Origin: Bacillus marasmi
GTDB lineage: Bacteria > Bacillota > Bacilli > Bacillales > Cytobacillaceae
Reading direction: 5' to 3'
Length of the DNA: 64,000 bases
NCBI RefSeq assembly: GCF_902168435.1
Contig: NZ_LR656168.1
Coordinates: forward strand, 62,001 to 126,000
Under the pieces are notes generated by a model. The model saw only the letters and a list, made by a program, of their open reading frames with translations. It was not told the origin of the DNA and ran no database searches. The translations under genes and the position numbers were made by a program. How positions within the stretch are numbered: the stretch's first letter is position 1; each line of letters starts with the position of its first letter. Shown here piece after piece: positions 25,777 to 51,019 of the stretch.

Positions 25777-25968
25777 ATAAGCGGAGAATTTCCCGTTATT
25801 GTATGTAAGGGGCGCTAATTAATCCGAAATAAGAGGAGAATTTCCGCTTAACTGCTCCCAAAAAGACAAAATAAAGTGATTTTTATGAAATAAGGGGAAA
25901 AACTCCTGTTATTTAAAGGGAAATATGGGTATTTCCCAAAATAAGCGGAATTCTTCCGCTTATTTTTA
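25777..25968. repeat. Short 52-bp-period hairpin array (4 units)
   Basis: Four copies of an imperfect palindrome of the type AATAAGCGGA...TTCCGCTTATT start at 25777, 25829, 25890 and 25941 (spacings 52, 61 and 51). The last copy is nearly perfect; the others have lost part of the stem. Period and design match the long arrays at 31.9, 46.9 and 50.3 kb although the arms differ. Confidence 0.7.
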
Positions 25969-26061
25969 AATACAAGTAAATCAACATTCGGGTTAACAAA
26001 CTCCCGTGCAAAAAAATTTGCACACAGTTATTTCAAGGTAGTGCCTATTGAAAAAAAGAAT

Positions 26062-26121
26062 AAAAAAACCGAACTATTTGGGAATTCTATGTAAGAATTT
26101 CCTAATAGTTCGGTTTTTTAT
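26062..26121. terminator. Bidirectional terminator
   Basis: A long stem, AAAAAACCGAACTATT with inner GGAATTC, pairs with its complement ending ATAGTTCGGTTTTTT. It lies between the aminotransferase (+) and DUF4395 (-) genes. Confidence 0.88.
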
Positions 26122-26151
26122 TTAGCTGAAATACTTATGTCCCAGCCTCTT

Positions 26152-26577
26152 TTAATGTTGTGTTCGACGATATTGGAATTGCTTCCATTGAAACAAAATA
26201 AAGCAGCCGATGCAAAAACCAAGTAATGCAACTGACGCCGCAATCCCGACCATAGCAGTAAAAATATATCCAAGTAGATCAATATTAAACAAGAAGCCGC
26301 TATAACCTAATCCTAAACAAATGACTGCAATCGTCTGATTAAACTTTTGTTGTTCCCAATCTTCTGGTACATAGGCGTTAATGTCCTTTGTTAGAAATAG
26401 CTTAGCAACTCTCATAATTGGATTGAATTGAAACAAAAGACCGAGGAGTCCCGAAACAAACGGGATTAACAATATCCATTCCTTGCCAGTTAGCCAGGTG
26501 AAAACAACACTTAACACAATCACCCATTGATTTGTTGTTACCAGCGGACGAGGAATCGACTTAATCATATTGGTCAT
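26152..26577 (-). CDS. DUF4395 membrane protein
   Basis: This 141-residue protein opens with IPRPLVTTNQWVIVLS and has about four membrane helices, which fits DUF4395 (often encoded near sulfur-transfer or thioredoxin genes). The start is ATG 26577 after AAAGGT. It is a single-gene unit with no informative neighbours, so its function is unknown. Confidence 0.72.
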   Translation of the reverse strand: MTNMIKSIPRPLVTTNQWVIVLSVVFTWLTGKEWILLIPFVSGLLGLLFQFNPIMRVAKLFLTKDINAYVPEDWEQQKFNQTIAVICLGLGYSGFLFNIDLLGYIFTAMVGIAASVALLGFCIGCFILFQWKQFQYRRTQH

Positions 26578-26650
26578 TTTAATCCCGACCTTTCTTATAT
26601 GTTTTACTTATTTTATATATATTATTATATTATTAATTTTTTGTCTATAT

Positions 26651-26679
26651 AAAAAAAAGAAACCTCAGCTGAGGCTCCC
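26651..26679 (-). terminator. Terminator of the nnr gene
   Basis: The 12-bp perfect palindrome CCTCAGCTGAGG with flanking pairs (GAG...TTC) is followed on the - strand by eight T residues. Confidence 0.85.
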
Positions 26680-26689
26680 TTGATAAAGG

Positions 26690-28243
26690 TTAATATATTA
26701 ATCTTTTTAACTGCTCACAAACACCATTAATTATATCTAATGGTAATACCCCGTAACTTGATAATTCCTTTCCTTTCTCTACTCCTGCCCTCGCATGCAA
26801 ATAACTAGCAGCTACTAGTGAGTCCATCGGTTGTGCCCGTTGAGCAAGAAACGACGCTATCAAACCGGTCAGCACATCTCCGCTACCGCCTTTACCTAAT
26901 GCATCGTTTCCATGTGGATTTATGTAGAGTTCACCGTCTGGTGAAGCGATGATTGAGCGATGACCTTTTAACAGCAAATAAACCTGGTTTTCTTTTGCAA
27001 AGTTTTTAGCTATTTCAATTCGGTTTGCTTCTACCTCTTTTACGGTAGTATTAAGTAATGTTGCCATTTCGCCTGGATGTGGGGTAAAAATGACAGTGCC
27101 ATTGTATCGTCTAACCAACTCAAAATCATTCCTTAATAAATAAAGTGCATCAGCATCAACAACAATAGATTGACCTGTAAGTTTTTCAAAAAACGACCTA
27201 ATCCACTTTTCTCCATCAGGAAAACGGCTCATTCCTGGTCCTATCGCGATGCAATCGATTTGAGGTAGCTTTTCGCACAACTTTTCAATTGCTGAAAAAG
27301 CAAAATGTCCATCAGTTTCTGGTAGTGGTAAAAATAATGCTTCAGGATTTTGAGCAGCTGCCATATGATAAATGCTCTCAGGAATACCCAGTGTTACTAA
27401 ACCTGCTCCTGATTTTAGCGCCGATTTTGCCGTGAATAGAGGTGCTCCCACATATGATTTTGAACCACCTACAACTAGAACATGACCAAACGTACCTTTA
27501 TGACCATGCTGTGTTCGAGTTGGAATAGCCTGCATAACGAGTGCTTCTGTGATTAATTTTGGTAAAATAAAGCCTAAATCCGCAGCAATTTGTGGTGGCA
27601 CAGAAATGTCTACTGCTTTCCACTCCCCGATATACTTCGGTCCATCCTGGAGGAAAAAGCCCAACTTCGGAAAAACAAACGTAACCGTCTTTTCCGCTTT
27701 TATCGCTACTCCTTCAACCTTACCGGTGTCACTGCTGACCCCTGAAGGAATATCAACGGAAATGACTGATTTTTGTGGCGCAATTTCATTTACCAGTTCA
27801 ATTACCGCTTTGAATGGCTCACGAACGGGACCGTTCACACCAGTTCCCAGAATACAATCAACGATGATATCAGCACGTTGCAATTCTGTCTTTATTTTTT
27901 CAAAATCGGAATCTTGAAGGTGCAGAATGGGTAATTGCCGCTTTATGTATACATCAAAATGAACCTTGGCATCCCCTGTAATTCGCTCAGGGGGAACCAA
28001 TAGGCACAAAATTACATCCCTACCTAAATCAATTAATCTTCGAGCAATCACAAACCCATCTCCGCCATTGTTCCCTCCACCTGCTAGTACAACGATTCGT
28101 GCGTTTTCACAAGGGGCGCTATCTAGGATTTCATCAACCACTTTAGCCCCGGCGTTTTCCATTAACACAATCCCCGGCAAACCAAGTGTATCCATCGTAT
28201 AACGGTCCATTTGCTGCATTTCCTTTTGCCCAGCGATAAACAT
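26690..28243 (-). CDS. nnr: Bifunctional NAD(P)H-hydrate epimerase / ADP-dependent dehydratase
   Basis: This 517-residue protein has an N-terminal YjeF_N epimerase domain (residues about 1-215; VLAGGGNNGGDGFVIAR) and a C-terminal carbohydrate-kinase-like dehydratase (about 235-510; VVDADAL, TPHPGEMATL and the signature NDALGKGGSGDVLTGLI). It repairs hydrated NADH and NADPH made by heat or by GAPDH. The start is ATG 28243 after GAGGAGG. Length and domain order are as in other Bacillus two-domain enzymes. Confidence 0.94.
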   Translation of the reverse strand: MFIAGQKEMQQMDRYTMDTLGLPGIVLMENAGAKVVDEILDSAPCENARIVVLAGGGNNGGDGFVIARRLIDLGRDVILCLLVPPERITGDAKVHFDVYIKRQLPILHLQDSDFEKIKTELQRADIIVDCILGTGVNGPVREPFKAVIELVNEIAPQKSVISVDIPSGVSSDTGKVEGVAIKAEKTVTFVFPKLGFFLQDGPKYIGEWKAVDISVPPQIAADLGFILPKLITEALVMQAIPTRTQHGHKGTFGHVLVVGGSKSYVGAPLFTAKSALKSGAGLVTLGIPESIYHMAAAQNPEALFLPLPETDGHFAFSAIEKLCEKLPQIDCIAIGPGMSRFPDGEKWIRSFFEKLTGQSIVVDADALYLLRNDFELVRRYNGTVIFTPHPGEMATLLNTTVKEVEANRIEIAKNFAKENQVYLLLKGHRSIIASPDGELYINPHGNDALGKGGSGDVLTGLIASFLAQRAQPMDSLVAASYLHARAGVEKGKELSSYGVLPLDIINGVCEQLKRLIY

Positions 28244-28304
28244 AACGCAACCTCCTCCTCGTTATCATTTTACAAAAATTACAGTCTGTTCACTAATTTT
28301 AAGA

Positions 28305-28344
28305 GAAAAAAAGCATAACCTGCCAACTCGGCTGGGCTATGCTT
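28305..28344 (-). terminator. Terminator of the PepSY gene at 28365
   Basis: AAGCATAACC...GGCTATGCTT with inner pairs is followed on the - strand by seven T residues. Confidence 0.85.
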
Positions 28345-28364
28345 AAGCTCAAATCTATATATTG

Positions 28365-28847
28365 TTAATCATCATCGTTGTTGTCATCATATTTGTCGTC
28401 ATTACGATCATCATCGTATCTGTCATCATCGTACCAATCATCGTCATATCGGTCGTCATCATGCTCTTTTGATAAAATCTCACCAGTATTAGCATCAATC
28501 TTGTACTCGACTTTTGCTTGACCCGTAACGACATCAATTTCATAGTAGCCGTCATCATCTAATTCAACTTTTGCGACCTCTCCAGGTGTATCATCTGTTG
28601 CAATCTTAATCGCTTCATCCTTCGTAATTTCTACATTCTTTATTTGCTCAATTGCGATGTCACTATCGTCACCAAAAATGCGGTCGTCATCCAAATAATC
28701 ATCAACTTTATTAATTTTAACCTTAATATCATTTTTTGCACTTTCTATCTTTGTATTATCTTGTTCACTTGCAAGTGCACCGACACCTACAACTCCACCA
28801 AACAACACTAATCCAGTCATAACCCCAATTATCAGTTTACGTTTCAT
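28365..28847 (-). CDS. Exported PepSY-domain protein with Asp-rich tail (YkoI-like)
   Basis: This 160-residue protein has a signal peptide (about residues 1-26), then a PepSY domain (about 65-125; ITKDEAIKIA ... GYYEIDVVTG ... VEYKIDANTGEILS) and a C-terminal 30-residue tail made almost wholly of Asp with Tyr, Arg and Asn. The start is ATG 28847 behind AAAGGGGGA; a longer in-frame opening has no ribosome site. The acidic tail could bind Ca2+ or other cations. Promoter repeats upstream match those of the next PepSY gene, so the YkoGH-like system probably controls both, as in the B. subtilis yko cluster. Confidence 0.78.
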   Translation of the reverse strand: MKRKLIIGVMTGLVLFGGVVGVGALASEQDNTKIESAKNDIKVKINKVDDYLDDDRIFGDDSDIAIEQIKNVEITKDEAIKIATDDTPGEVAKVELDDDGYYEIDVVTGQAKVEYKIDANTGEILSKEHDDDRYDDDWYDDDRYDDDRNDDKYDDNNDDD

Positions 28848-28893
28848 TTGTTTTCCCCCTTTATTGTTGTTATCTACAATATAAACAACGAAA

Positions 28894-28933
28894 ATGAGGA
28901 AACTCATAAAGTAAAATGAGAATTTGATGAGAA
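28894..28933 (-). promoter_or_regulatory. 11-bp-phased direct repeats, likely response-regulator site
   Basis: On the + strand ATGAGGA (28894), ATGAGAA (28916) and ATGAGAA (28927) occur at spacings of 22 and 11 bp, so all three lie on one helix face. This is the usual pattern for OmpR-family regulators. The site lies 47-86 bases upstream of the PepSY gene at 28365-28847. Confidence 0.6.
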
Positions 28934-28946
28934 AAGGCTAAAAGTT

Positions 28947-29513
28947 TTAATCATCCCAGGAAATTGATACAACTTCTCCGGTAAGTCCATGAATTTGAAC
29001 GGTTCCCTCCTCGCCATCGTCCCGCTCCACTTCAACAAAATAATAAATAACGCCATCGATATCCTTTGTTTCGAACTCATCAATTGTGCCGTTAATTTGC
29101 TGTAAAGCGATCTCCTTCGCCTCTTCCTCAGAAATGAGTTGAGCCTGATGATCCGTTGGCGGAGAATTTGTATCCGTTTGTTGCTCAGTTGGCCCCTCCT
29201 TGTTCCCCTTATTTTCTGGTTGCTTGGAAATCTGATTATTAAGCTTTGTTAAACTACCAATCTCCCCTGTTTCCCGATTGATTTCTACTTCAAAGCTTCC
29301 TGCATCAAGTTCTAATTCAAACACAAATAATTGATTTTGCTCGCGAACCTTTACGATTTTACCATTATATAAACTTTCAACTTTACTCCTTGCTTGTTTT
29401 TCCGTTAACAATTCGGCTGCGGTCAGATTCGTAAAAAGCTGCCAAACCACCACTCCAGCAATAATTATGACCACTGCTATAAGCGCAAGGCGTTTCGGTT
29501 GTATTTGAGTCAT
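28947..29513 (-). CDS. Membrane-anchored double-PepSY protein
   Basis: This 188-residue protein has one N-terminal membrane helix (about residues 8-28) and two PepSY-like units (about 34-90 and 127-187; LTEKQARSKVESLYNG and ISEEEAKEIALQQING) joined by a polar linker. It lies between the histidine kinase and the YkoI-like gene, like YkoJ/YkoI in B. subtilis. PepSY domains are thought to inhibit proteases or modulate sensors. The start is ATG 29513 after ATAGGTGGG. It has its own promoter-region ATGAGAA motif. Confidence 0.78.
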   Translation of the reverse strand: MTQIQPKRLALIAVVIIIAGVVVWQLFTNLTAAELLTEKQARSKVESLYNGKIVKVREQNQLFVFELELDAGSFEVEINRETGEIGSLTKLNNQISKQPENKGNKEGPTEQQTDTNSPPTDHQAQLISEEEAKEIALQQINGTIDEFETKDIDGVIYYFVEVERDDGEEGTVQIHGLTGEVVSISWDD

Positions 29514-29565
29514 TTATATCCCACCTATCTCACTCATTCCTTTTCGTTTACTATACTAATTTAAA

Positions 29566-29583
29566 ATGAGAATTTACTGAGGA
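29566..29583 (-). promoter_or_regulatory. Second copy of the phased ATGAGAA motif
   Basis: ATGAGAA (29566-29572) and CTGAGGA (29577-29583) on the + strand are 11 bp apart and overlap the end of the kinase gene, just ahead of the double-PepSY gene. They match the motif at 28894-28933. Confidence 0.5.
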
Positions 29584-30938
29584 TTGGCGGGCAGCAGCAA
29601 TATTTTAGCCTTCGTACCAACCCCTTCCGTGCTTTCGATTTGAAGCTCTGCACAGGTTGCCTCGGAAATCTCCTTCGCAAGTGCTAAACCGAGACCAAAT
29701 CCACCTGTTTGTCGAGTGCGGGCTTTATCAACTCGATAAAATCGATCAAATATTTTTTCTAATTCAGCTGGCGGAATCCCAATTCCACGGTCACAAATTT
29801 CCACAGCAACCTTTTCTTTATTTTTCAAAATAACGACTTCAATAAAATCTTCGCTATATTTTCGGGCATTATCCAACAAAATGTATAATAGTTGTTTCAA
29901 CTTTTGTTGGTCGGCTCTTACATAATCCTCCGCCTCAATTCGCAGTTTAATTTCGCGCTGATAAGCTTTCTGAAAGGAACGCACCAGCTCGGTGATAATC
30001 GGCGTCAACCGTATATCTTCTAGCTCTATTTTCCATTGTTCATCATGCCTGGCCATTAACAGTAATTGCTCCGTTAAGTCCTTCATCCGGATCGCTTCAG
30101 AATGTATCGCCTGAACCGATTCCTCAAACAGCTCAGGCTGCTCCTTCCCCCTTCGTTTCAAAAGAGAGGCATAAGATTCAATCACTGTTAAAGGTGTTTT
30201 CAATTCATGGGAAGCATTCGAGATAAACCTGCCTTGTTTCTCGTAGTTCATCTCTAGCAATTCGATCATCCTGTTGAACGTCCTTCCCATCTGATACAGT
30301 TCATCCTTTGATTCCTTAGGCAAGCTAATTCGCTTAAAGCGACTACTTTCAATGATTTCACTCATAGTGATGATCATAGATGTGATGGGACGAGTAATAA
30401 AATTCCCGAGGAGCCGCGATGAAATTATAACCGGAACCGTCGCAATGACTGTCACAGCAATTAATATTATTTTTAGCATAGCAAGCATGTCAGCAGTCGT
30501 TTTTAGGCTTTCGGTCAGTTGCATCGCCACTACTTCTCCATCATTCCAAACGATGGGCATAGATACAAATGCATGGGGAATCCCATTCATTTCAACGATT
30601 TCATTTACTTCTTTTTGATAAAATTTAACTGGTGTGTCGCGGAGACTTTGCTGTTCGGGTACAACAACACCCGCTCCTCGCTTACCGTCACTTTTCACCA
30701 TTTGCAGCATCCCATTAATCGGTACATATGCCTGCAGTAGCTCTTTAGGTGGAACTGGGGTTTCAGTTTGGTTTATTCCCTTAACTGCCCGTGCCGCCTC
30801 ATCCATAGTCCGTTCCAATTCCTTTTGAAGCATCATCTTACTAAAAGAAAAATAGATAGACCCATTAATAAAGATGAGTAAAATGATAAATAGCACTGTT
30901 GTATAAAGATTGATTCGATTCTTTAGCTTCATATGCAT
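29574..30938 (-). CDS. Sensor histidine kinase (YkoH-like)
   Basis: This 454-residue kinase has two membrane helices (about residues 9-30 and 151-172), a HAMP domain (RPITSMIITMSEI to MGRTFNRMIELLE), HisKA (FISNASHELKTPLTVIESYA) and an ATPase domain (LLDNARKYS, CDRGIGIP, GFGLGLALAKE). It begins at the last base of the regulator stop codon (TAATG); ATG 30932 is an alternative. With the PepSY genes downstream it resembles the B. subtilis ykoG-ykoH cluster. The signal is unknown. Confidence 0.9.
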   Translation of the reverse strand: MHMKLKNRINLYTTVLFIILLIFINGSIYFSFSKMMLQKELERTMDEAARAVKGINQTETPVPPKELLQAYVPINGMLQMVKSDGKRGAGVVVPEQQSLRDTPVKFYQKEVNEIVEMNGIPHAFVSMPIVWNDGEVVAMQLTESLKTTADMLAMLKIILIAVTVIATVPVIISSRLLGNFITRPITSMIITMSEIIESSRFKRISLPKESKDELYQMGRTFNRMIELLEMNYEKQGRFISNASHELKTPLTVIESYASLLKRRGKEQPELFEESVQAIHSEAIRMKDLTEQLLLMARHDEQWKIELEDIRLTPIITELVRSFQKAYQREIKLRIEAEDYVRADQQKLKQLLYILLDNARKYSEDFIEVVILKNKEKVAVEICDRGIGIPPAELEKIFDRFYRVDKARTRQTGGFGLGLALAKEISEATCAELQIESTEGVGTKAKILLLPANPQ

Positions 30939-31642
30939 TAAGCATCCTTTAATACATAGCCTACACCACGTACGGTGTGAATAAGTGTCGTATTGTAAGG
31001 CTTGTCTATTTTGTTTCTTAAATAACGAATATACACATCAACAATATTTGTATCCCCATAATAATCGTAGCCCCAAACACCATTTAAGATTTGTTCCCTA
31101 CTGAGGACTTGGCGAGCATGCTTCAACAAATATGCCAATAAATCAAACTCTCTCGGTGTGAGTTCGATTGACTCTCCCATTATTTGCACTTCATGAGTCA
31201 TTTCACTTAGCTTTAATTCAGCGATTTGCAGCCAATTCTGTTCTATTTCAATTTGCTGTTGCTTCGGCTTGGGTTGATTCAACCTTAAGGCAACGCGGAT
31301 TCGCGCCAATAATTCTTCAATCTGAAATGGCTTAGTAACATAGTCATTCGCACCAAGGTCCAATCCTGATACTTTATCTTCAACAGATGATTTTGCCGTC
31401 AGCATAATGACTGGCGTCGATTGATCATTGCTGCGAATCCTGCGGAGCAGCTCTATTCCACTTATGCCCGGCAGCATCACATCCAATAAAATAAGATCCC
31501 AATCTTGTTCCTGAACCAGCTGAAATCCATTTAGTCCGTCCAACGCCTTGCCTACTTCATAACCCTCGTATGTAAGCTCTAGCTCCAAAACTCGGGCAAT
31601 CTTCTCCTCGTCCTCCACAACTAAAATCCTTGGCTTTGTCAT
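30938..31642 (-). CDS. OmpR-family response regulator (YkoG-like)
   Basis: This 234-residue regulator has receiver residues E10-D11, phospho-acceptor Asp54 (LLDVMLPG), MLTAKSS and VTKPF motifs, and a winged-helix domain (LTPREFDLLAYLL; NIVDVYIRYLRNKID). The start is ATG 31642 behind AAAAGGAG; an in-frame ATG 51 bases upstream has no such site. The likely targets are the two PepSY genes that share the ATGAGAA repeats. Confidence 0.92.
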   Translation of the reverse strand: MTKPRILVVEDEEKIARVLELELTYEGYEVGKALDGLNGFQLVQEQDWDLILLDVMLPGISGIELLRRIRSNDQSTPVIMLTAKSSVEDKVSGLDLGANDYVTKPFQIEELLARIRVALRLNQPKPKQQQIEIEQNWLQIAELKLSEMTHEVQIMGESIELTPREFDLLAYLLKHARQVLSREQILNGVWGYDYYGDTNIVDVYIRYLRNKIDKPYNTTLIHTVRGVGYVLKDA

Positions 31643-31754
31643 GCTGATCTCCTTTTTGAATGTTTTTTCTGAATTTACTGTTAATTTTATCATTTGTGAG
31701 GGGGTTTTTGAAATTTGCTGGAATGGGATATGAAGAGATGTACTTAGTTTTCCT

Positions 31755-31792
31755 CAAAAAAACGCGCATGGATTCACACCCAAGCGCGTTTC
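31755..31792 (-). terminator. Terminator between repeat array A and the response-regulator promoter
   Basis: AAACGCGC pairs with GCGCGTTT across an 18-base loop and on the - strand is followed by seven T residues. The nearest - strand gene upstream is the NERD gene, about 1 kb away beyond the repeat array, so a transcript running through the array would end here. Confidence 0.7.
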
Positions 31793-31862
31793 TCTCTAAT
31801 ATTTAGTTTCTATTACTCTCGTTACAAAAATCGCTATTGAGTCGTAACTGCCTCATAGTTTC

Positions 31863-32746
31863 TCTCTATGTGACCGTTTTCTATCCTCTACCCGAAAATC
31901 GGGCACGTAGGCCTTCTCTACGTGACCGTTTTCCACTCACTTTCCATGATTCGGGCACGTAGAATCTCTCTACGTGACCGTTTTCTATCCTCTACCCGAA
32001 AATCGGGCACGTAGGCCTTCTCTACGTGACCGTTTTCCACTCACTTTCCGTGATTCGGGCACGTAGAATCTCTCTACGTGACCGTTTTCTATCCACCTTC
32101 CGTGATTCGGTCACGTAGAATCTCTCTACGTGACCGTTTTCTATCCACTTTCCATGATTCGGGCACGTATACCTTCTCTACGTGACCGTTTTCCACTCAC
32201 TTTCCGAAATTCGGTCACGTAGAATCCCTCTACGTGACCGTTTTCTATCCACTTTCTATGATTCGGGCACGTATACCTTCTCTACGTGACCGTTTTCCAC
32301 TCACTTTCCGAAATTCGGTCACGTAGAATCCCTCTACGTGACCGTTTTCTATCCTCTCCCTGAAAATCGGTCACGTAGAATCTCTCTACGTGACCATTTT
32401 CTATCCTCTCCCCGAAATTCGGGTACGTAGAATCTCTCTACGTGACCGTTTTCCACTCACTTTCCGTGATTCGGGCACGTAGAATCTCTCTACGTGACCG
32501 TTTTCCACTCACTTTCCGTGATTCGGGCACGTAGAATCTCTCTACGTGACCGTTTTCTATCCTCTACCCAAAAATCGGGCACGTAGGCCTTCTCTACGTG
32601 ACCATTTTCTATCCTCTCCCCGAAATTCGGGCACGTAGAATCTCTCTACGTGACCATTTTCTATCCTCTCCCCGAAATTCGGGTACGTAGAATCTCTCTA
32701 CGTGTCCTATCTCCAATCACTCTCCAAAAATCCTGCACATAAAAGA
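31863..32746. repeat. 52-bp tandem hairpin array A (17 units)
   Basis: Units begin at 31863 and recur every 52 bp without any insertion or deletion to 32746. Each has a left arm CTACGTGACC and a right arm GGGCACGTAG or GGTCACGTAG; the right arm of one unit and the left arm of the next form a tight hairpin (11-bp stem, about 5-base loop), followed by about 25 bases of spacer. Two spacer types (CCACTCACTTTCC and CTATCCTCTACCC) alternate irregularly. In several units a G-to-T change makes the stem fully paired. There is no ORF across the block. Confidence 0.95.
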
Positions 32747-32771
32747 AAACTCATATGTAACCCATCCCATA

Positions 32772-33686
32772 CTATTCATAATAGACCCATTTACCATATC
32801 CAATTAAGCTAAAATGCTTTATTAAAATTTTCCTAATTACCTTTTTGGAATACAGCTTGTTACACCATTCATAAATTATACTTGTTGTTATTTTTATCTC
32901 CGGAAATAACAGCCGCACTTCCTCCACACTCCGCACAACCGCTGACTCAACACTTTCCACGGTTCCACAATGCAAACATTCCATCATAGACCCACTAACA
33001 TTAACAGCCAACGAACCACAGCAAGCTGACATAAGCCCTTTGCGCAGCGAATCCCAAGAATACCGCGGTAAATCCCTTATAGGAAAATCCGTAATATGCT
33101 CTTTCAAAAGAAAATCTGCTAACTTCCGATGACTGTCATTAAGAACGTCTGGCTTCGAATTTAATTCCTTAATAAAATTATTTAATTGTGGAAAATATAC
33201 AATGGGTTCATCAAGGGGAGCTTGGTATAAATAGAATTCTGGATTAATAAACACAACATATCCTTCGACATGAAGCGAAAATCCATTTTTACGCAATAGT
33301 TTTCGTAGCATTGTTTGAATGCGGTCTAGTTGATGTAGAGGATTTTTGATTTCACTTTTCGTTTTGCAGCTATAAAAATTGTTGTCTTGGTAATAGTAAT
33401 TTCCATCGGAGTTTTTAATTTCAAAGGGGATGATTGAATGTTGGGTAATGAGCGTTGAATCAATTTGAAAGATTGTACCGTCACACTTTAATAGCAAGTC
33501 ATTCAGCACATAAAACCTATTATCGAGTCCGGCCCTTTCTAATACTTGATCGAATTGAACCTCACCATCAAAGCCTTTTTTCATAAATAGATAGCGGTTT
33601 TTTTCTTGAGTAGTTAATTCCATTCTTGCATTTAATAACCTTAACATCTTTAATTCCTTAGATTCTTCACGATTCTTATAAGCCAT
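32772..33686 (-). CDS. NERD (nuclease-related) domain protein
   Basis: This 304-residue protein has a NERD domain (residues about 37-155; GFDGEVQFDQVL, then FYVLNDLLLKCDGTIFQIDSTLI and IIPFEIKNSDGNYYY, matching the D-ExK nuclease-like core) and a C-terminal region with a CxxC-type pair near HCGTVES and a helical end. NERD proteins are predicted nucleases of unknown substrate. ATG 33686 fits the AAAGGA site; upstream in-frame ATGs lack one. A 21-base palindrome lies about 47 bases upstream. No terminator is seen between this gene and array A. Confidence 0.75.
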   Translation of the reverse strand: MAYKNREESKELKMLRLLNARMELTTQEKNRYLFMKKGFDGEVQFDQVLERAGLDNRFYVLNDLLLKCDGTIFQIDSTLITQHSIIPFEIKNSDGNYYYQDNNFYSCKTKSEIKNPLHQLDRIQTMLRKLLRKNGFSLHVEGYVVFINPEFYLYQAPLDEPIVYFPQLNNFIKELNSKPDVLNDSHRKLADFLLKEHITDFPIRDLPRYSWDSLRKGLMSACCGSLAVNVSGSMMECLHCGTVESVESAVVRSVEEVRLLFPEIKITTSIIYEWCNKLYSKKVIRKILIKHFSLIGYGKWVYYE

Positions 33687-33753: not shown

Positions 33754-33778
33754 TTTTCAAAACACAAATCTCTCCCAT

Positions 33779-42656: not shown

Positions 42657-43151
42657 TTGATTCATATAGTTAAGACAGGTGAAACACTTTATCAGATCTC
42701 AAGAGATTACCGGACACCGCTGTCTGAAATAATAAGAGCCAATCCTTCAATAAATCCAAATTCCCTCTACCCTGGTCAGCAAATTGAGATTCCAGGCTTC
42801 CCACCAATAAACTCTATCCCATATCGAATTGAAGTTTCCGTTAATCAACGATGGCTTAAATTATTTAGGAATGGCGTGCTACAAAAACAATATCCTATAG
42901 CGGTCGGGCGAATGCTCCATAACACTCCGACAGGGAATTTTATCATCGTAAATAGAGCCCCAAATCCAGGTGGACCTTACGGAACAATGTGGCTAAGTTT
43001 ATCAAAAGAAAGCTACGGAATTCACGGAACCAATGATCCAAGTTCAATTGGCAAGGCTGTTTCGAAGGGATGTATCCGTATGTATAACAAAGATGTTGAG
43101 GAATTGGCTTCAATTGTTCCGAATGGTACGCCTGTTGTGATACATCCATAA
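42657..43151 (+). CDS. ykuD: YkuD-type L,D-transpeptidase with LysM
   Basis: This 164-residue protein has an N-terminal LysM domain (residues about 2-46; [30 protein letters not shown]) and a YkuD catalytic domain with the signature [20 protein letters not shown] (catalytic His and Cys). Length and layout equal B. subtilis YkuD, a spore-associated peptidoglycan cross-linker. The start is TTG 42657, seven bases after GGAGG; an ATG at 42642 contains that ribosome site and is unlikely. Confidence 0.92.
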
Positions 43152-43241
43152 TCCTTTTGGTTTCAATTGGAAACACGAGGTTAATGAATCGAATCGAGAA
43201 TATCCGGGAAAGGTAAGATAAAAACGGTCTGGGTGGTATTA

Positions 43242-43883
43242 ATGAAATCCAGCACTTTAGCTCCCGCTATTTTTATTTGCGGAATCTTAAGTCCAATATT
43301 CTTTGTAACTGTGTTTTTAATTGATGGAGCAACTCGACCAGACTATGATCCATACTATCATTGGATTAGTCATTTGAGCCTGGGTGAACGAGGCTGGATT
43401 GGAATTGTTAATCTAATTGTTATGGGGATTAATATTACTTTTTTAGGAATCTTAGCAAGAAAATGCTTACGTGGTAAACGTACTAGTTGGGGACCAAGAC
43501 TAATCTTATTACTAGGAATTGGATTATTATTATGTGGTGTCTTTGTCATTGACCCTATGTTGGATTATCCTCCAGAAACTCAGGCTCATCTCTCATTAAT
43601 AGGCATTTTTCATTTCATTAGCAGCTTTGTGATGTTTGAGGCGTTAATCGCTACCTGTTTTGTGATGGCTTTTCGGTTTTCCAAGTGGTTTTCGGTTTAT
43701 TCGATTATTTCTGGGTCTCTCATCCTTTTGAGTATTATAATATGTGTTGGTTTTGTGGTTTTGGACTTTACTGAGACTTTTGTTGGCGGACCTGGTGGCT
43801 TATTCGAGAGGATTTCAATGGTAATTGGCTGTTTGTGGATTGTGGTATTTTCGTCTTTATTAATAAGGCGGATTCGTGATTAA
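43242..43883 (+). CDS. DUF998 membrane protein
   Basis: This 213-residue protein has six predicted membrane helices and the DUF998 layout (YDPYYHWISHLSLGERGWIG after helix 1, FVIDPMLDYPPE, HLSLIGIFHFISS). The family resembles the membrane part of cytochrome-b561-like proteins, but no haem ligands are clear and the function is unknown. ATG 43242 follows GGGTGG. Confidence 0.75.
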   Translation: MKSSTLAPAIFICGILSPIFFVTVFLIDGATRPDYDPYYHWISHLSLGERGWIGIVNLIVMGINITFLGILARKCLRGKRTSWGPRLILLLGIGLLLCGVFVIDPMLDYPPETQAHLSLIGIFHFISSFVMFEALIATCFVMAFRFSKWFSVYSIISGSLILLSIIICVGFVVLDFTETFVGGPGGLFERISMVIGCLWIVVFSSLLIRRIRD

Positions 43884-43932
43884 CATTTTTTTAGAATATA
43901 AGGGACAATTCAGGGGAATTTTCGAGATGTTT

Positions 43933-44045
43933 TGTCCGTATGAAGCTTTTATAAGGACACTTCTGCTTTATTTTTAAAGAAAAGTGTCCTTATGAATCCA
44001 CAGGGACACTTTTCCGGATTTTTACAGGGAGATTGTCCCTATGAA
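43933..44045. repeat. Minimal 52-bp-period hairpin array (2-3 units)
   Basis: TGTCC-TATG motifs occur at 43933, 43985 and 44034 (spacings 52 and 49). Each pairs with a following A-GGACA or A-GGGACACTT arm, for example AGTGTCC...GGACACT at 43983-44010. It lies between two convergent genes. The TGTCCCTATG core is the complement of the CTATGGGACA arm in array C. Confidence 0.65.
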
Positions 44046-44058
44046 TTAACCCCTTCAA

Positions 44059-45107
44059 TCATTGCTCAGCTTCCCATTTCCCCACTTCTTCCCTGACAAT
44101 TGGGGCTACCTCGGTTCCTAATAGTTCAATCGCCCGCATGACTTCCGCATGAGGCATTGATCCGACTGGCACGTGAAGCATAAATCTTGTGATCCCCACT
44201 TCCTTGCGAAGATGGATGATTTTTGCTGCAACGGTTTGCGGATCACCTACATATAAAGCACCATCAAAACTGCGCGCTGCATCAAAGCTCGATCGATCAT
44301 AATGGCCCCAACCACGTTCCCGACCTAGCACATTCATAACATACTGAGTGGATGGGAAAAATTTATCAGCAGCCGTCTCATTATCTTCTGCGACAAAACC
44401 ATGGGAATGTGACGCAACCTTTAATTTCGTAATATCATGTCCTGCCTTCTCCGCGGCACGATAATAAAGTTTAACCAAAGGAGCAAAGCGAACCGGACTG
44501 CCACCAATGATAGCCAATACCAACGGAAGTCCTAGCAATCCAGCCCTAACGACCGATTCACTGTTACCGCCACTGCCAATCCAAATTGGCAATGGATCTT
44601 GAACTGGCCGAGGATAAACACCCCGGTTATGAATCGGTGGACGGTGTCCGCCACGCCAGGAAACGACCTCAGACTCCTGTAGCTTCAACAATAGCTCTAG
44701 CTTTTCTTCAAATAGCTCATCATAATCCTTTAAATCATAGCAAACAACGGAAATGATTCGATAAAGGAGCCCCTTCCTGCCATTATTTCTGCTCTTCCAT
44801 TTGAAATCCCATCAAGCGAGGCAAAATCCTGGAACACTCTGACAGGGTCCGCTGAAGACAACACGGTAACCGCACTAGTTAAGCGAATTCGTTGTGTTTG
44901 CGGTGCAGCTGCTGCGAGAACGATTGCTGGATTGGAAGCTGCAAAATCCTCACGATGATGCTCCCCAACACCGAAAATATCTAATCCCACTTTATCTGCC
45001 AAGATAATTTCTTCAACTACTTCACGCAAGCGCTCAGCATGACTGATGACCTTGCCTGTCTTAACATCAGGTGTTGTTTCTACGAACGTACTAATTCCAA
45101 TTTCCAA
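44059..45107 (-). pseudogene. Frameshifted LLM-class flavin-dependent oxidoreductase
   Basis: Two frames together encode one luciferase-like monooxygenase: residues 1-125 ([14 protein letters not shown] to [10 protein letters not shown], start ATG 45107) and a C-terminal part ([41 protein letters not shown] and beyond). The break is near 44740, where an expected GGC-TAT (Gly-Tyr) reads GC-TAT, a one-base deletion leading to TAA at 44730-44732. A sequencing error is possible, since the rest is intact. The family reduces or oxygenates small molecules with FMNH2. Confidence 0.82.
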
Positions 45108-45212
45108 TGACCATTCCTCCTCAGTTTGTTGATTTTATACTCATAGCCATTCTTATTGCATAGTTCTATTTTAATATTTTTTAAAAAATAATAATTATAA
45201 AATGTTCATGCA

Positions 45213-45241
45213 TAAAAAAGCACCTAAATTAAAAGGTGCTC
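45213..45241 (-). terminator. Terminator of selO
   Basis: GCACCT pairs with AGGTGC around an 8-base loop; on the - strand six T residues follow. Confidence 0.85.
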
Positions 45242-45251
45242 ACGGACATGA

Positions 45252-46727
45252 TTAAGTACCACAAAACGTTTGATAAGGTCGTGCTGACGGTGCGGGCAAT
45301 TGGCAATATTCATCATGATTGGCGATGTACTCATAAGGTCGAGTCAAAACATTCAACAGTTTCATCATCACATTGTAATCACCATTCGTTGCAGCCTCTA
45401 ATGCCTCCTCAACTCGGTGGTTGCGAGGGATGACGACCGGATTTACGCTTCGCATCAACCGCTGTACATCCTGTTTTGATTCCTGTTGCTTCTCCAATCT
45501 CGTTTGCCATTGTTCATGCCATTTGCCAAAATCTGAACTGCCAAACATCGCTTCACTCTGCAGATTATAAGTTAACGAGCGAAACGTATTGGTAAAGTCG
45601 GCACGATGCTTTTTCATTAGGCTAAGGATGCCTTCAATTAGTGCCTCATCCCCAGTTTCTTCTCTATATAAGCCTAATTTTGCTCGCATACCCTTTGTCC
45701 AATTTTGACTAAATAGCTCATTGAACTTTGAAATCTCATCCTGTGCGATTTCCACCGCTTTATTTTCATCAGCATGTAATAACGGCAACAATGTTTCAGC
45801 AAACCTGGCGAGGTTCCATCCACCAATATATGGCTGATTCCCATAAGCGTATCGCCCATCACGGTCAATTGAACTAAACACAGTAGCAGGATCATAAATA
45901 TCCATGAAAGCGCACGGTCCATAATCTATTGTTTCACCGCTTATTGTCATATTATCAGTGTTCATCACACCATGGATAAATCCAATCTGCATCCATTTGG
46001 CGATTAACTCCGCTTGGCGTTGAATAACCGTCTGAAGCAGGCGCCGATATCGGTTTGACTCCGATTCACCTTCAAGCTCTGGATAGTGACGCTGGATTGT
46101 ATAATCCGCAAGTTTGCGTAGTTCATCTTCAGAGCACCAAGCCGCTGCATATTGAAAAGTGCCTACACGGATGTGACTCGCTGCAACCCGAGTTAATACG
46201 GCACCAGGTAAGATTGTTTCACGAATCACTTCCTCGCCGGTGGTAACGACCGCCAAACTACGGGTAGTCGGAATTCCGAGCGCATGCATCGCTTCACTTA
46301 TGATGTATTCGCGAAGCATTGGACCTAGGACGGCGCGACCGTCACCCCCACGTGAGTAAGGTGTCCTTCCTGAGCCTTTCAACTGAATATCGTATCGTTT
46401 CCCCGAAGGCGAGATATGTTCGCCAAGTAAATGTGCCCGCCCGTCACCTAATCGTGTAAAATGGCCAAATTGGTGGCCAGCGTATGCTTGAGCAAGCGGA
46501 GCAGCACCTTCGGGAATGATGTTTCCAGCAAAAATTTCCGCTCCGACCTTTCCCTCCAACTCTTGTTGGTTTAATCCTAGTTCTGCTGCTAATGCATCGT
46601 TGAAAATCACCAGCTTTGGAGAAGCTACTTGTGTCGGATTAAGACTTGTATAAAATGTATTGGGGAGCTTGGCATAGCTGTTATCAAAGTTCCAGCCTTG
46701 CTCCACTACTAATTGCTTTTTGATCAT
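45252..46727 (-). CDS. selO: SelO-family protein adenylyltransferase
   Basis: This 491-residue pseudokinase-fold enzyme (YdiU/SelO) has [25 protein letters not shown] (split, about residues 103-127), [11 protein letters not shown] and the DYGPCAFMD metal-binding region. SelO transfers AMP to Ser, Thr or Tyr of target proteins under oxidative stress. The C-terminus ends TFCGT, with Cys in the place where eukaryotic SelO has selenocysteine. ATG 46727 follows AAAGGGGAT; an upstream ATG lacks a ribosome site. Array B lies just upstream. Confidence 0.93.
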
Positions 46728-46882
46728 ACTATCCCCTTTTCGCCATTTGTCTTGATTGTAACAGGTTTTCACTATCAAAACCTTATTAACGAACTGAATC
46801 TCTGTAGCAATTTTAGTTTCTGTTTGAGCTTGCTTATTATTCCCTTAGGAAATATTTATAGATGCTGTTATTCAAACTTCTT

Positions 46883-47713
46883 TTATGTGACCGTTTTGTG
46901 TTTGGCGCTTTGGTTTGGGCACATAGAGAGCGGCTACGTGACCAGTCTGGGGTTTTTCGCTTCGATTTGGGCACGTAGAGAGCGGCTACGTGACCGGTCC
47001 GGGGTTTTTCGCTTCGTTTTGGGCACATAGAGAGCGGCTACGTGACCGGTCCGGGGTTTTTCGCTTCGATTTGGGCACATAGAGAGCGGCTACGTGACCA
47101 TTTCGGTGTTTATCGCTTCGATTTGGGCACATAGAGAGCGGCTACGTGACCGGTCCGGGGTTTTTCACTTCGATTTGGGCACATAAAGAGCGGCTACGTG
47201 ACCGGTCCGGGGTTTTTCGCTTCGATTTGGGTACATAGAGAGCGGCTACGTGACCGGTCCGGGGTTTTTCGCTTCGATTTGGGCACATAGAGAGCGGCTA
47301 CGTGACCGGTTTGGTGTTTGGCGCTTCGGTTTGGGCACATAGAGAGCGGCTACGTGACCGGTCCGGGGTTTTTCGCTTCGATTTGGGCACATAGAGAGCG
47401 GCTACGTGACTGGTCCGGGGTTTTTCGCTTCGATTTGGGCACATAGAGAGCGGCTACGTGACCGGTCCGGGGTTTTTCACTTCGATTTGGGCACGTAGAG
47501 AGCGGCTATGTGACCGGTTTGTTGTTTGGCGACTCAATTTGGGCACGTAGAGCTTGGCTACGTGACCGTTTTTTTGTTTGGCGACTCAATTTGGGCACGT
47601 AGAGCTCGTTTACGTGACCTTTTCGAGGTTTGTCGCTACAGTTTGGGCACATAGAGCTCGGCTACGTGACCGTTCCGTCCTTTGATCGCTTCGACTTGAG
47701 CACAAAAAGCTAA
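46883..47713. repeat. 52-bp tandem hairpin array B (16 units)
   Basis: From 46934 to 47662 the left arm CTACGTGACC recurs exactly every 52 bp; one earlier unit at 46883 is offset by one base. The right arm is GGGCACATAG or GGGCACGTAG. These arms match array A. The spacer (GGTCCGGGGTTTTTCGCTTCG) is different and GC-richer. The tight hairpin is GGGCACATAG-7 bases-CTACGTGACC. Edge units are the most divergent. Confidence 0.95.
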
Positions 47714-47726
47714 TAGATATGAACAC

Positions 47727-47765
47727 AAAAAAAGCACCTAGAGAAACTCAATTTTCTCTAAGTGC
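47727..47765 (-). terminator. Terminator of the isoprenoid enzyme gene
   Basis: AAGCACCTAGAGAAA pairs with TTTCTCTAAGTGC with one bulge and is followed by seven T residues on the - strand. It precedes array B in the direction of transcription. Confidence 0.85.
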
Positions 47766-47818
47766 ACATGTTTAATGGACTGACGTAGCAAACCTCACCT
47801 GCCCCCCAAAAAATAACT

Positions 47819-50203
47819 CTAATGATCTCGATTCACAATGTAATTCATTAAATGCTTAAAAAACGTAGTATTTCTCGGCACACTCTCCAACGTTTCAATG
47901 GCTAAACAATAATGCTCCCACATAGCTTTTTTGGCATCATCCACACCGAGAATCGACACAAAAGTCGACTGATTGTTTGCCGCATCGTTACCTATAGGTT
48001 TCCCTAACTGACTGAGTTCCCCTTCAACATCGAGTAAATCATCCTTAATTTGAAAGGCGATTCCTGCGTGACGGGCAAAAGTTTTCAAAGCATTAAGCTC
48101 AGCCGACTCTACGCCTGCGAGAATAGCCGGCATGACTAATGAGGCCTCAAAGGCAATTCCGGTTTTATAAAAGCACATCTCATTCAGCTGATCAACCGTC
48201 AACCACTTCCCCTTTGAATAGAGGTCCATTGCTTGGCCACGACACATATCGCCTACAGTATGAGCAGAATAATGTATTAATTTCAGCACCGTTTCAGCGG
48301 CAAAGCCCTGCAGTTCGGCCTGCTCCTCAACAGCCTTTTGCGTTAAAAATAAACCTGTTAATTCAGCTATCGCCGTATTGTAAACTTTGTGAAGGGTTGG
48401 TCGCCCACGCCGAATTGAAGCATTATCCTGTGCTGGCAAATCATCAAAGACCAGTGACGCTGTATGCATGTACTCTAATGATTTCAATAGCGGAATGATG
48501 GCAGATTCATTTAGTCCATATTCCTCCACCCCGATTACCCAAGTCATGATCGGCCTTAACCGTTTCCCGTCACTCTCAAGACTATAATTTGCCGCATCGA
48601 TAATTGGCTCCGCAAGCAAGGCATCAGCCCCATTTTGCTCGATTTTTAACAAATGATTAATCTGAGCTCGAACGGTCTTTATTTTATCAAAAAATTGCTC
48701 CTGCTCTGTACGCTCTCTTTGTAAAATCGTAATCATGTGGTCTCGGAGCAATTTGTCAAAGAAATCAATATCGACAGCCTTATTTACCATGGTTTGGACT
48801 AGCTTGCGAAAGCTTGGGCTTCCCGAGAAAAATAGCTCCATCACTTCCTGATACTTCTCGGTTCCATTCCGTTCTTTAAACCGCTTCAATCCATTGATTG
48901 CCCGAGCTAAAATAACCTCACGAACCTTGGAATCTGATTGGTAAACATGGTGGATTAAATAGGAGATAACGGTCCAATATAATTCATATGGATTGATTAA
49001 ATCGGAGCGGGTTTCATGATGTGTAATATAGTAGGTAAATGGTGTAACAGCTCCGGCCTCCAGGTCATTAAACATATCCGTGAAATCATCAGCAAGTTGA
49101 TTATATATTCCATACGCAAAGGTTCGCTGCTCAAACCCCTTATCCTCTGGGGCACTTAGTACAGAACGAGCAATTAATCTAGACGCTGACGATTTTAATA
49201 TGATTGGTACATACAGCTCTTCATCGCTATAGTTCGGATTAGCTAAATTCTTGTTGCGATCAAATTCCTGAGCTTGAAAGAACACATAGGCTTGTTCGAA
49301 AAATGAATCCAATTGAACTTCTTGCAGATGAGATTTTATATATTCAAAAGCTTGCTGCAGCTCACGATGGATAAAGCCAAGTAAGTCTGCATTTAAGCCT
49401 GGCCAGTCAGCCAATGCAGGCACAATACGCGTTGTTAAAGCCGAACGAATCATCGCAGAGTACTGTGGCTTTTCATCATTTGTTAATACTTGGGAATCTA
49501 ATAGGTCATCTATGAAGGGGTAGGTCAAACCATAGCAATATCCAAGCCGAACCGCCTCATCAAGCTTTCTTGCCCGCTGTTCTGGCGTTAATTGAGGGTC
49601 CATTTCTTCAACGGCATGAATGTAAACACCGCCAATGATTTTTATCAACTTCCGCTGTGCATGGACGGGATCCAATCCCTCGGGAATTTGCATAGATACC
49701 GTCTTTAATTTACCCATTAACCAATTAAAGGATAATTCAACGCCGTCCTGTTGTGCTTTCCGGTACATGGACACCATGCTGAAGGGTTCTTTTAGGATGC
49801 GATTTTCTTTATTTTGAGGTTGTGTCAGTTGCTTCTTCAAATATGCTGCTACCTGACTGACGCGTGCTTGGGTTTCAGGTGAATTCAATTCCTTCCCAAG
49901 GTCTCGCATAAATAAGTAAGCTATACTTCGTTCTAGATAGCTATCCAATTTCCCCCGATAATTAAGCCACTGTATATAAAGCTGATAATCATCAGAATTT
50001 GCTTCCCCTATCCCTTTTGATAATAAGGACATTAAAGGAATTTTTTGGAGATGGCTGTGTTTCCATGAGTGGATATCTTTTGTTAAGGTCTGAATATAGG
50101 ATTTTTGCATAACCTGTTCCTTCAGACATTGGAAATAATGAGCAGCCTTCTGCTCTGCGACTATATAGCTTGTTTCATTTTTTATCATTAACTCCTCTTT
50201 CAT
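47819..50203 (-). CDS. Two-module isoprenoid enzyme: N-terminal class I-like module plus polyprenyl synthetase
   Basis: This 794-residue protein has two halves. The C-terminal half (about 515-794) is a trans-polyprenyl diphosphate synthase with SDGKRLRP (545-551), first Asp motif DDLPAQD (587-593), RRGRPT and second Asp motif DDLLD (721-725). The N-terminal half (about 1-500) is all-helical and has its own pair of Asp-rich motifs, IDDLLD (231-236) and ADDFTDMFND (371-380), as in class I terpenoid synthases. The order recalls fungal chimeric terpene synthases. It probably makes and then converts a prenyl diphosphate. ATG 50203 follows GAGGGA. No cyclase, P450 or other terpene gene is adjacent. 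Confidence 0.75.
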   Translation of the reverse strand: MKEELMIKNETSYIVAEQKAAHYFQCLKEQVMQKSYIQTLTKDIHSWKHSHLQKIPLMSLLSKGIGEANSDDYQLYIQWLNYRGKLDSYLERSIAYLFMRDLGKELNSPETQARVSQVAAYLKKQLTQPQNKENRILKEPFSMVSMYRKAQQDGVELSFNWLMGKLKTVSMQIPEGLDPVHAQRKLIKIIGGVYIHAVEEMDPQLTPEQRARKLDEAVRLGYCYGLTYPFIDDLLDSQVLTNDEKPQYSAMIRSALTTRIVPALADWPGLNADLLGFIHRELQQAFEYIKSHLQEVQLDSFFEQAYVFFQAQEFDRNKNLANPNYSDEELYVPIILKSSASRLIARSVLSAPEDKGFEQRTFAYGIYNQLADDFTDMFNDLEAGAVTPFTYYITHHETRSDLINPYELYWTVISYLIHHVYQSDSKVREVILARAINGLKRFKERNGTEKYQEVMELFFSGSPSFRKLVQTMVNKAVDIDFFDKLLRDHMITILQRERTEQEQFFDKIKTVRAQINHLLKIEQNGADALLAEPIIDAANYSLESDGKRLRPIMTWVIGVEEYGLNESAIIPLLKSLEYMHTASLVFDDLPAQDNASIRRGRPTLHKVYNTAIAELTGLFLTQKAVEEQAELQGFAAETVLKLIHYSAHTVGDMCRGQAMDLYSKGKWLTVDQLNEMCFYKTGIAFEASLVMPAILAGVESAELNALKTFARHAGIAFQIKDDLLDVEGELSQLGKPIGNDAANNQSTFVSILGVDDAKKAMWEHYCLAIETLESVPRNTTFFKHLMNYIVNRDH

Positions 50204-50327
50204 AAGAAATCCCTCATTGTTTCGTTTTCTCGTCTTTATACTATTACGTATTCCTAAGCTTCTATTATATTACATTTTTATGAAAAGATATGTAGGGCGC
50301 AAGGTGTAAGTAAACTCTAGAAACCTT

Positions 50328-51019
50328 CTCTAAAAGACACTTTTTGCTTATCCTCATAGTGCATTGTCCCATACTGCAACTCTATAAGACACTTAGTGAA
50401 ATTTTTCATAGTGTTTTGGCTCATAAGGCATCTCTATGGGACAATTCTAGTCAATTTCCCTTTCCTTTTGGCTCATAAGGCATCTCTATGGGACACTTCT
50501 AGCCAATTTCCCTTTCCTCTTGGCTCATAAGGCAACTCTATGGGACACTTCCAACCAATTTCCCTTTCGTTTTGGCTCATAGGGCAACTCTATGGGACAC
50601 TTCCAACCAATTTCCCTTTCGTTTTGGCTCATAGAGCATCTCTATGGGACACTTCCAACCAATTTCCCTTTCGTTTTGGCTCATAGGGCATCTCTACGGG
50701 ACACTTCTAGCTAATTTTCCTTTCGTTTTGGCTCATAAAGACTCTCTATGGGACGATTCCAGCCAATTTCCCTTTCGTTTTGGCACATAGAGTATCTCTA
50801 TGGGACACTTCCAACCAATTTCCCTTTCGTTTTGGCTCATAGGGCAACTCTATGGGACGATTCTAGTCAATTTTCCTTTCGTTTTGGCTCATAAAGACTC
50901 TCTATGGGACGATTCCAGCCAATTTCCCTTTCGTTTTGGCACATAGAGTATCTCTATGGGACACTTCTAGCTAATTTCTTCTTGTTTTTGTTCCATAGCG
51001 ACCTCTACCGGGTCATCCG
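50328..51019. repeat. 52-bp tandem hairpin array C (13 units)
   Basis: Units of the type CTCTATGGGACACTTCCAAC...TTTTGGCTCATAGGGCAA begin at 50328 and recur every 52 bp to 50952 without indels; a decayed unit starts at 51003. The arms TGGCTCATAG and CTATGGGACA pair imperfectly (8 of 10) with a 7-base loop. The spacer core CAATTTCCCTTTCGTT is strongly conserved. It lies between the isoprenoid gene promoter and the lysine ABC terminator. Confidence 0.95.

What the first reader, a model, noticed from the sequence alone, without database searches (positions are those of the whole stretch)
25777..51019. A family of five non-coding arrays with one shared 52-bp period
Seen directly: repeats at 25.8, 31.9, 43.9, 46.9 and 50.3 kb all have a 52-bp period (exact across at least 11 consecutive units in each long array). 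Every unit pairs a right arm with the next left arm to form a tight hairpin, followed by about 25 bases of spacer. Arms and spacers differ between loci, but length and design do not. This needs a mechanism that keeps unit length while sequence changes, such as a size-measuring protein, about five helical turns of phasing, or a copy mechanism with a fixed ruler. All five lie just past the 3' end of a - strand gene. I know of no named Bacillus element that fits.
Basis: partly seen in the sequence, partly recalled or inferred. Interest (0 to 1): 0.9.

Follow-up and report, generated by a model that had tools for sequence, protein, structure and literature searches.

The report
Phased 52-bp repeat arrays in Bacillales
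These non-coding arrays belong to a published but unexplained class of 52-letter repeats in Bacillus-like bacteria, and most of their seemingly unrelated sequences turn out to share one hidden mirror-symmetric design that looks like a row of evenly spaced protein-binding sites on DNA.

Summary
The three long arrays are real (period 52, no indels in the TRF fit); the 43.9-kb locus is a short degenerate member; the 25.8-kb locus does not fit. "No known element" is wrong: constant-length, variable-sequence 52-nt repeats in Bacillus are published (Subirana & Messeguer 2021), function unknown. What I add concerns the class. Most of 32 sequence families share a cryptic design: a dyad of ten positions per arm around about 7 bp, weakly paired at pairs 3-4 from outside, with G and C exactly 24 bp apart (454 of 493 units counted), then a purine-rich spacer of about 25 bp. 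A covariance model of it hits 41 of 61 same-order genomes and none of 148 others drawn from the phylum. Arm changes are compensated without the G-U excess of RNA helices, and length changes are rare, so the constraint looks like duplex DNA spaced by five turns. Polarity mostly follows the leading strand (30 of 36 arrays; G031 57 of 61 loci), but not in G015, G023 or for G001's 51-bp family. Y1 transposases do not track the arrays. Best guess: phased, polar sites for an unidentified protein; a self-amplifying satellite is the main rival.

The parts
31849..32760 (-). 52-bp array, 16.2 units by TRF (31861-32704); left arm GGTCACGTAG, right arm CTACGTGCCC on the minus strand
46906..47704 (-). 52-bp array, 15.3 units; arms GGTCACGTAG / CTATGTGCCC on the minus strand
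50305..51004 (-). 52-bp array, 10.9 units by TRF (50413-50978) plus degenerate edge units; arms TGTCCCATAG / CTATGAGCCA on the minus strand
43933..44040 (-). short degenerate member of the same class (about 2-3 units by eye, TGTCC...GGACA arms)
   Evidence: model match 28.7 bits, E 7e-7; no TRF row
25776..25964 (.). cluster of four AATAAGCGG-type hairpins, spacings 52/61/51; not shown to belong to the class
   Evidence: sequence by eye; no model match up to E 5
47734..47765 (-). intrinsic-terminator-like stem of the gene at 47819-50203, between its 3' end and the array
   Evidence: consensus scan; 7 found in 43.7-51.2 kb, 7.6 expected from shuffles

Best explanation
Each array is a row of double-stranded DNA sites, one per five helical turns, for an unidentified protein that probably binds as a dimer. 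Each site is an imperfect dyad, usually with G and C 24 bp apart; sites repeat every 52 bp so that bound units sit on the same face of the helix and can contact their neighbours. The purine-rich strand mostly runs with the leading strand, so the array can be read as polar. Arrays probably grow and shrink by slippage or unequal exchange, and families seed new places, while changes of length are removed by selection. SHOWN: architecture, dyad covariation, rarity of length change, spread over genera, non-orthologous positions for one family, polarity bias in several genomes. INFERRED: a protein, its dimer state, same-face binding, selection rather than mutation bias, any role in chromosome architecture, and the amplification route.
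For: Hidden consensus over 32 families: 14.0 bits against 3.1 (max 4.3 in 40 runs) for shuffled units. Unit level: G-12 with C+12 in 454 of 493 units; majority of units in 52 of the 54 arrays counted. Covariation on 25 of 36 three-unit windows: 80.5% standard pairs against 51.0% shuffled, score 0.637 against 0.160, 0 of 500 shuffles. No RNA-type wobble: sense G-T 114 against A-C 125, 21 against 24. Rare length change. The model hits 41 of 61 relatives, own genome included, and of 149 genomes in the phylum draw only the window's own. Consensuses printed in PMC8161180, not used to derive this: 19 of 27 have a dyad at p<=0.05; 15 of 27 have G and C 23-25 apart about the centre, 11.6% of shuffles. 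Polarity with the leading strand: 30 of 36; two-arc fit G031 57 of 61, G002 28 of 30, G034 30 of 34, beyond all shuffles.
Against: No protein identified. Arms differ between families in one genome, so one sequence-specific protein would need loose specificity. Polarity is no better than shuffled in G015 (11 of 16), G023 (19 of 28) and for G001's 51-bp family (10 of 15 best fit; 9 of 15 by GC skew). 18 of 65 arrays have period 51, 3 have 53, 2 have 54. 12 of 27 published families lack the G...C rule, the largest B. coagulans family among them. An array in G057 (L303) has, by eye, one loop larger by 11 bp, which fits whole-turn phasing but not a fixed 7-bp loop.
Confidence: 0.4

Rival explanations
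1. Self-amplifying satellite without a cellular role: hairpins stall replication and favour slippage or template switching, the polarity reflects hairpins on the lagging-strand template, and 52 reflects the geometry of the slippage intermediate.
For: Degenerate edges and more homogeneous centres by eye; TRF also reports 104 and 156 bp multiples; one family sits at 17 loci without a shared flanking ORF in three genomes; a leading-strand bias would follow from replication.
Against: Does not by itself explain the G/C rule shared across genera or why unit length is kept after the unit sequence has changed. No excess of G-T over A-C pairs on the purine strand (156 against 229 in 50 arrays).
Confidence: 0.27
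2. RNA function: arrays are transcribed as chains of hairpins that act as 3'-end stabilisers, protein sponges or small RNAs.
For: Reads from 52-nt repeats in B. coagulans RNA-seq are reported (PMC8625621). Polarity is sense to codirectional genes in 23 of 30 scorable arrays. Purine-rich spacers would stay unfolded.
Against: Compensated arm changes lack the wobble asymmetry of selected RNA helices. An unpaired spacer need not keep an exact length. No Rfam match on the arrays. In 2 of 2 scorable arrays between two lagging-strand genes the polarity is antisense.
Confidence: 0.15
3. Transcription insulator: on the pyrimidine strand each hairpin is followed by a short T run, so the array is a train of weak terminators against antisense or convergent read-through.
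For: A-rich flanks on the purine strand; 16 of 65 arrays between convergent genes, 38 codirectional; G-T pairs are ahead on the pyrimidine strand by cells (229 against 156; 25 arrays against 18, 7 ties).
Against: T runs are short; terminator-like sites in 43.7-51.2 kb are not above shuffles (7 against 7.6); no exact 52-bp spacing would be needed; the G-T lead is not seen in the aligned windows.
Confidence: 0.1
4. REP/BIME-like elements moved by a Y1 (RAYT) transposase.
For: Hairpins with a mid-stem irregularity near 3' ends resemble REP elements (recalled); the genome has two Y1_Tnp genes of 198 and 200 aa.
Against: Flanks printed for 2 own and 4 relatives' genes carry, by eye, GGGGGACnGTCCCCC-type repeats or nothing similar, not 52-bp units. 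G006, G007 and G021 have 51, 56 (the cap) and 24 model hits and no Y1_Tnp; G011, G038 and G047 have 17, 12 and 9 Y1_Tnp matches and no model hit.
Confidence: 0.03

Closest known systems
52-nt tandem repeats of Bacillus (Subirana & Messeguer 2021, PMC8161180)
   Same: Constant 51-53 nt length, variable sequence, several families per genome, non-coding; the paper notes short signals and their reverse within one repeat
   Different: The paper reports species-specific signals and no common sequence; here a shared dyad, a G...C rule, polarity and a cross-genus model. Parts 1-4 of 5 and the table section were read; the authors' 2020 J. Bacteriol. paper is not held and was not read, so some of this may be in it
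REP / BIME elements with RAYT transposases (recalled)
   Same: Imperfect hairpins with a weak middle, often 3' of genes
   Different: Regular long tandem arrays of fixed period; no link to Y1_Tnp genes here
CRISPR arrays
   Same: Regular array with a dyad in the repeat
   Different: Spacers are repeated, not unique; the whole 52-bp unit repeats
Iterons and other phased protein-site arrays (recalled)
   Same: Direct repeats at whole helical turns for cooperative protein binding
   Different: Many loci per genome (61 in G031), many sequence families, no known protein

Membership tests
52-nt tandem repeats of Bacillus (Subirana & Messeguer) | Repeat length 51-53 nt, constant within the array | tested here: met
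   3 arrays in the window; 63 of 65 arrays have modal lag 51-53, having been selected for period 50-54
52-nt tandem repeats of Bacillus (Subirana & Messeguer) | Several sequence families per genome with the same length | tested here: met
   36 families among 65 arrays, 16 of them with members in the window's genome
52-nt tandem repeats of Bacillus (Subirana & Messeguer) | Non-coding, at least four repeats | tested here: met
   Met for the three long arrays; not for 43.9 kb and 25.8 kb
REP/RAYT | Element flanks its own Y1 transposase gene | tested here: not met
   Flanks printed for 6 genes (450 bases up, 500 down), read by eye, none with a 52-bp unit
REP/RAYT | Genomes with the elements have the transposase | tested here: not met
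   G006, G007, G021
CRISPR | Unique spacers between identical repeats | tested here: not met
   The spacer is part of the repeated unit
CRISPR | cas genes | not tested
   No search made
Structured RNA family | Helices kept by compensatory and G-U changes on one strand | tested here: not met
   Compensation yes; wobble asymmetry no
Structured RNA family | Match to a curated RNA family | tested here: not met
   Rfam gathering search: 3 matches in the window, none on an array

The most novel reading that the evidence does not exclude
The 52-bp repeats, described as lacking any common sequence, are one order-wide, strand-polar chromosomal site system: five-turn phased dyads, dozens of arrays per genome, oriented along replication, bound by an unknown protein that measures or marks fork direction or domain structure.
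Probability: 0.25. Interest if true: 0.85.

Novelty: new member of a known kind. Interest (0 to 1): 0.6.

Why it matters
The published class is a standing puzzle: why would a bacterium keep the length but not the sequence of a repeat? The shared dyad, the G...C rule, the polarity and a covariance model that finds arrays regardless of family make this testable: a three-unit bait with defined point and spacing controls, and a phyletic profile to look for the partner gene.

Tried and rejected
RAYT transposase as the maker: rejected. RNA helix under selection: the wobble test gave no support in three counts. Co-occurring gene: only Y1_Tnp (41 genomes), Spo0A (60 of 61 genomes) and SbcD (61 of 61 with a match, 57 over the cut-off) were tried; the last two cannot discriminate. 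Phage carriage: one exact hairpin pattern of one family in viral contigs gave 0, which says little about other families. Replication versus transcription as the source of polarity: not settled. In one search, 2 of 2 codirectional-lagging contexts and 8 of 9 convergent contexts favour the leading strand; against it, of the 4 exceptional G031 loci two run with a lagging convergent gene and two against both rules, while another G031 locus (L364) runs with the leading strand beside genes called lagging; in G001, L227 and L282 run against both rules. Gene calls in scripts came from my own crude codon-score caller, so contexts carry errors; one 'divergent' case has a gene called 2 bp from the array.

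Selections: the alignment for the model used 25 of 36 windows; five arrays had been put aside by hand before the windows were cut. The 11 windows left out are near-duplicate own arrays, arrays of unclear orientation, and a few others, among them L213 and L259, which lack the G/C rule in that register, so 'invariant in 25 of 25' is partly chosen; the fairer counts are 27 of 32 families for G and for C separately and 454 of 493 units in 54 of 65 arrays (11 arrays with weak or even-centred hairpins not counted). One search dropped arrays with hairpin score under 5.5 before grouping, which left 32 families instead of 36. In one search, 14 of 65 arrays could not be scored, and only arrays in loci of 10 kb or more with absolute GC skew of 0.03 or more (36) entered the leading/lagging count. 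The GC-skew check of G031 covers 18 of its 61 loci, none of them among the 4 exceptions. Own-genome stretches were not a random draw: contigs and places outside C23 were chosen because one search had hit an array there, and all three contigs of the 738.5-kb survey (C23, C21, C41) had such hits. Loci in the 65-array set were likewise picked by match. The loci per genome were clustered by hand from the hit lists, best strand kept; the lists are capped (150 candidates scored per genome). G034 is reported as 12% contaminated. In one search only 56 candidates per genome, only 22, were scored. (flank search without masking) was unusable and was repeated with arrays masked. One search stopped with an error after its array count and was rerun.
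Full report
OBSERVATION. TRF on the window gives period 52 at 31861-32704, 46906-47704 and 50413-50978, each with 0% indels. The sequences show units made of a dyad of about 27 bp and a spacer of about 25 bp. A model made later (below) also finds 43933-44040 (28.7 bits) but not the 25.8-kb cluster. In 738.5 kb of the same genome, 23 of 34 non-coding tandem arrays (2.5 copies or more, period 10 or more) have periods 51-53; the stretches lie on three contigs that all had hits, so density is not a genome average, but the period distribution is clear. Array by array, the consensus hairpin beats the best of 60 shuffles for only one of the three window arrays; the case for the dyad is the comparison of families below.

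KNOWN CLASS. Constant 52-nt repeats of variable sequence are described in 176 Bacillus genomes by Subirana & Messeguer 2021 (PMC8161180; parts 1-4 of 5 and the table section read). They propose a nucleoid protein or small RNAs and leave the function open. Their Genes 2021 paper (PMC8625621; parts 1-2 of 3 read) reports reads from these repeats in B. coagulans RNA-seq. Of their 2019 paper (PMC6749651) I saw passages only ('52 nt' does not occur). Their 2020 J. Bacteriol. paper is not held, so part of what I describe may be in it. In the listings of six literature searches I saw no paper on a shared consensus.

ANATOMY. I collected 65 arrays of period 50-54 and three or more copies (own genome 35, G001 9, G009 8, other relatives 8, named records 5). 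Modal lags: 52 in 42, 51 in 18, 53 in 3, 54 in 2. Of 962 half-unit steps 20 depart from the mode, in 11 arrays, while neighbouring units differ at 3922 of 27599 bases. A global alignment counted 129 indel events, many of them paired +1/-1 in a few arrays, which I judge mostly alignment artefacts; the lag measure is the cleaner one. In TRF output the 20-21-bp arrays of these genomes carry 0-13% indels, the 52-bp ones mostly 0, at most 5. No neutral indel rate was measured here.

HIDDEN CONSENSUS. Grouped by sequence, the arrays form 36 families. Around the dyad centre, pairing over families is 0.64 at an inner gap of 6-7 nt, 0.81-0.89 at 8-15, 0.72 at 16-17, 0.56-0.61 at 18-21, 0.89 and 0.75 at 22-25, 0.36 at 26-27 and 0.44 or less further out; the centre was chosen per family for best pairing, so levels are inflated, but the dip is not built in. 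Oriented by the purine-rich spacer strand, 32 families give 14.0 bits of information against 3.1 (max 4.3 of 40) for shuffled units; G at -12 in 27 and C at +12 in 27 of 32. Families of one genome may share ancestry, so they are not fully independent. Per unit the G...C pair occurs in 454 of 493, and in most units of 52 of the 54 arrays counted. Consensuses printed in PMC8161180, not used to derive this, show a dyad at p<=0.05 in 19 of 27, and G and C 23-25 apart about the centre in 15 of 27, against 11.6% in shuffles; 12 of 27 do not fit.

DNA, NOT RNA. On 25 of 36 three-unit windows, aligned without gaps, 80.5% of cells pair against 51.0% after shuffling, and covariation is 0.637 against 0.160, with slid controls at 0.146 or less. 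Yet G-T pairs on the sense or purine strand do not exceed A-C: 114 against 125 (38 codirectional arrays), 156 against 229 (50 arrays), 21 against 24. RNA helices under selection are expected to keep G-U on one strand; sites read in duplex DNA are not (established knowledge, recalled). This is indirect, and units of one array are not independent.

DISTRIBUTION. A covariance model of the 25 windows finds matches at E<=0.001 in 41 of 61 genomes of the order, own included, 31 of 49 genera. In a phylum draw of 149 genomes only the window's own has a match at E<=1e-5 (stricter scoring, 22 candidates per genome; of the 20 other genomes listed 1 is of the same order and 3 of the same class, 128 are not listed). 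Hit genomes include many that gave no training sequence, for example G031 with 144 hits. One 51-bp family shared by G000, G001 and G004 sits at 17 places whose flanks (about 1.5 kb a side, 38 ORFs) share no gene: families disperse within a genus.

POLARITY. By a position matrix, 30 of 36 arrays in stretches with clear GC skew run with the leading strand (own 20 of 23). In G031 57 of 61 loci fit two arcs (100 shuffles reach at most 45), and GC skew of the flanks agrees at 18 of 18 loci checked, the 4 exceptions not among them. G002 28 of 30 and G034 30 of 34 also exceed all 200 shuffles; G009 12 of 13 agrees with its GC skew, but its best two-arc fit was reached by 19 of 200 shuffles. G015 (11 of 16), G023 (19 of 28) and G001's 51-bp family (9 of 15 by skew) show no such order. 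Genes are mostly on the leading strand too: polarity is sense in 23 of 30 codirectional contexts. Where the two can be told apart the leading strand wins in 2 of 2 and 8 of 9 cases, with exceptions in G031 and G001. I call it biased, not fixed.

PLACE. Contexts of 65 arrays: codirectional 38, convergent 16, divergent 2, undetermined 9; no background rate was computed. Two of ten further G031 loci looked divergent, so 3' placement is a tendency. In the window the array at 46.9 kb lies beyond a terminator-like stem of the upstream gene.

MECHANISM. The data favour a site in duplex DNA, repeated every five turns. 52 bp is 5 x 10.4 bp and the sister class of 20-21 bp is two turns; this is arithmetic, not proof. 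One G057 array carries, by eye, a loop larger by 11 bp, so that units of 52 and 63 alternate (period 115), which keeps the turn; it is a single case. A bound protein, its identity and its task are inferred. The satellite reading explains spread, homogenisation and a replication bias, but not the shared G...C rule. A REP-type transposase is excluded as a general cause.

VERDICT. Real, a member of a published class, with a shared design that I did not find described in the texts I could read; function unproven.

Noticed in passing
window 53681-53862 (-) and 56964-57065 (-): Lysine riboswitch and purine riboswitch aptamers (Rfam RF00168, RF00167).
   Followed up: no
L202 (G000:C27:246001-262000): A Y1 (RAYT-like) gene flanked by GGGGGACnGTCCCCC repeats; the frame after it resembles the start of a ComM/YifB-like protein (recalled), as if the element sat inside that gene.
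   Followed up: partly
L034 1794-1957, L042 3498-3590, L240 5103-5284: Non-coding 20-21-bp tandem arrays, the second published constant-length class, coexist in these genomes.
   Followed up: no
L042 5848-7130: Large near-identical tandem repeats of 228 and 346 bp with GTGAGGTCAGACCCC motifs.
   Followed up: no
L303 1287-1693 (G057:C28): Array of period 115 that, by eye, alternates units of 52 and 63 bp, one loop being 11 bp larger.
   Followed up: partly
L169 8096-8523 (G027): Period-65 repeat that looks like a CRISPR array by its repeat.
   Followed up: no
window 25776-25964: Four AATAAGCGG-type hairpins at irregular spacing, outside the 52-bp class.
   Followed up: partly
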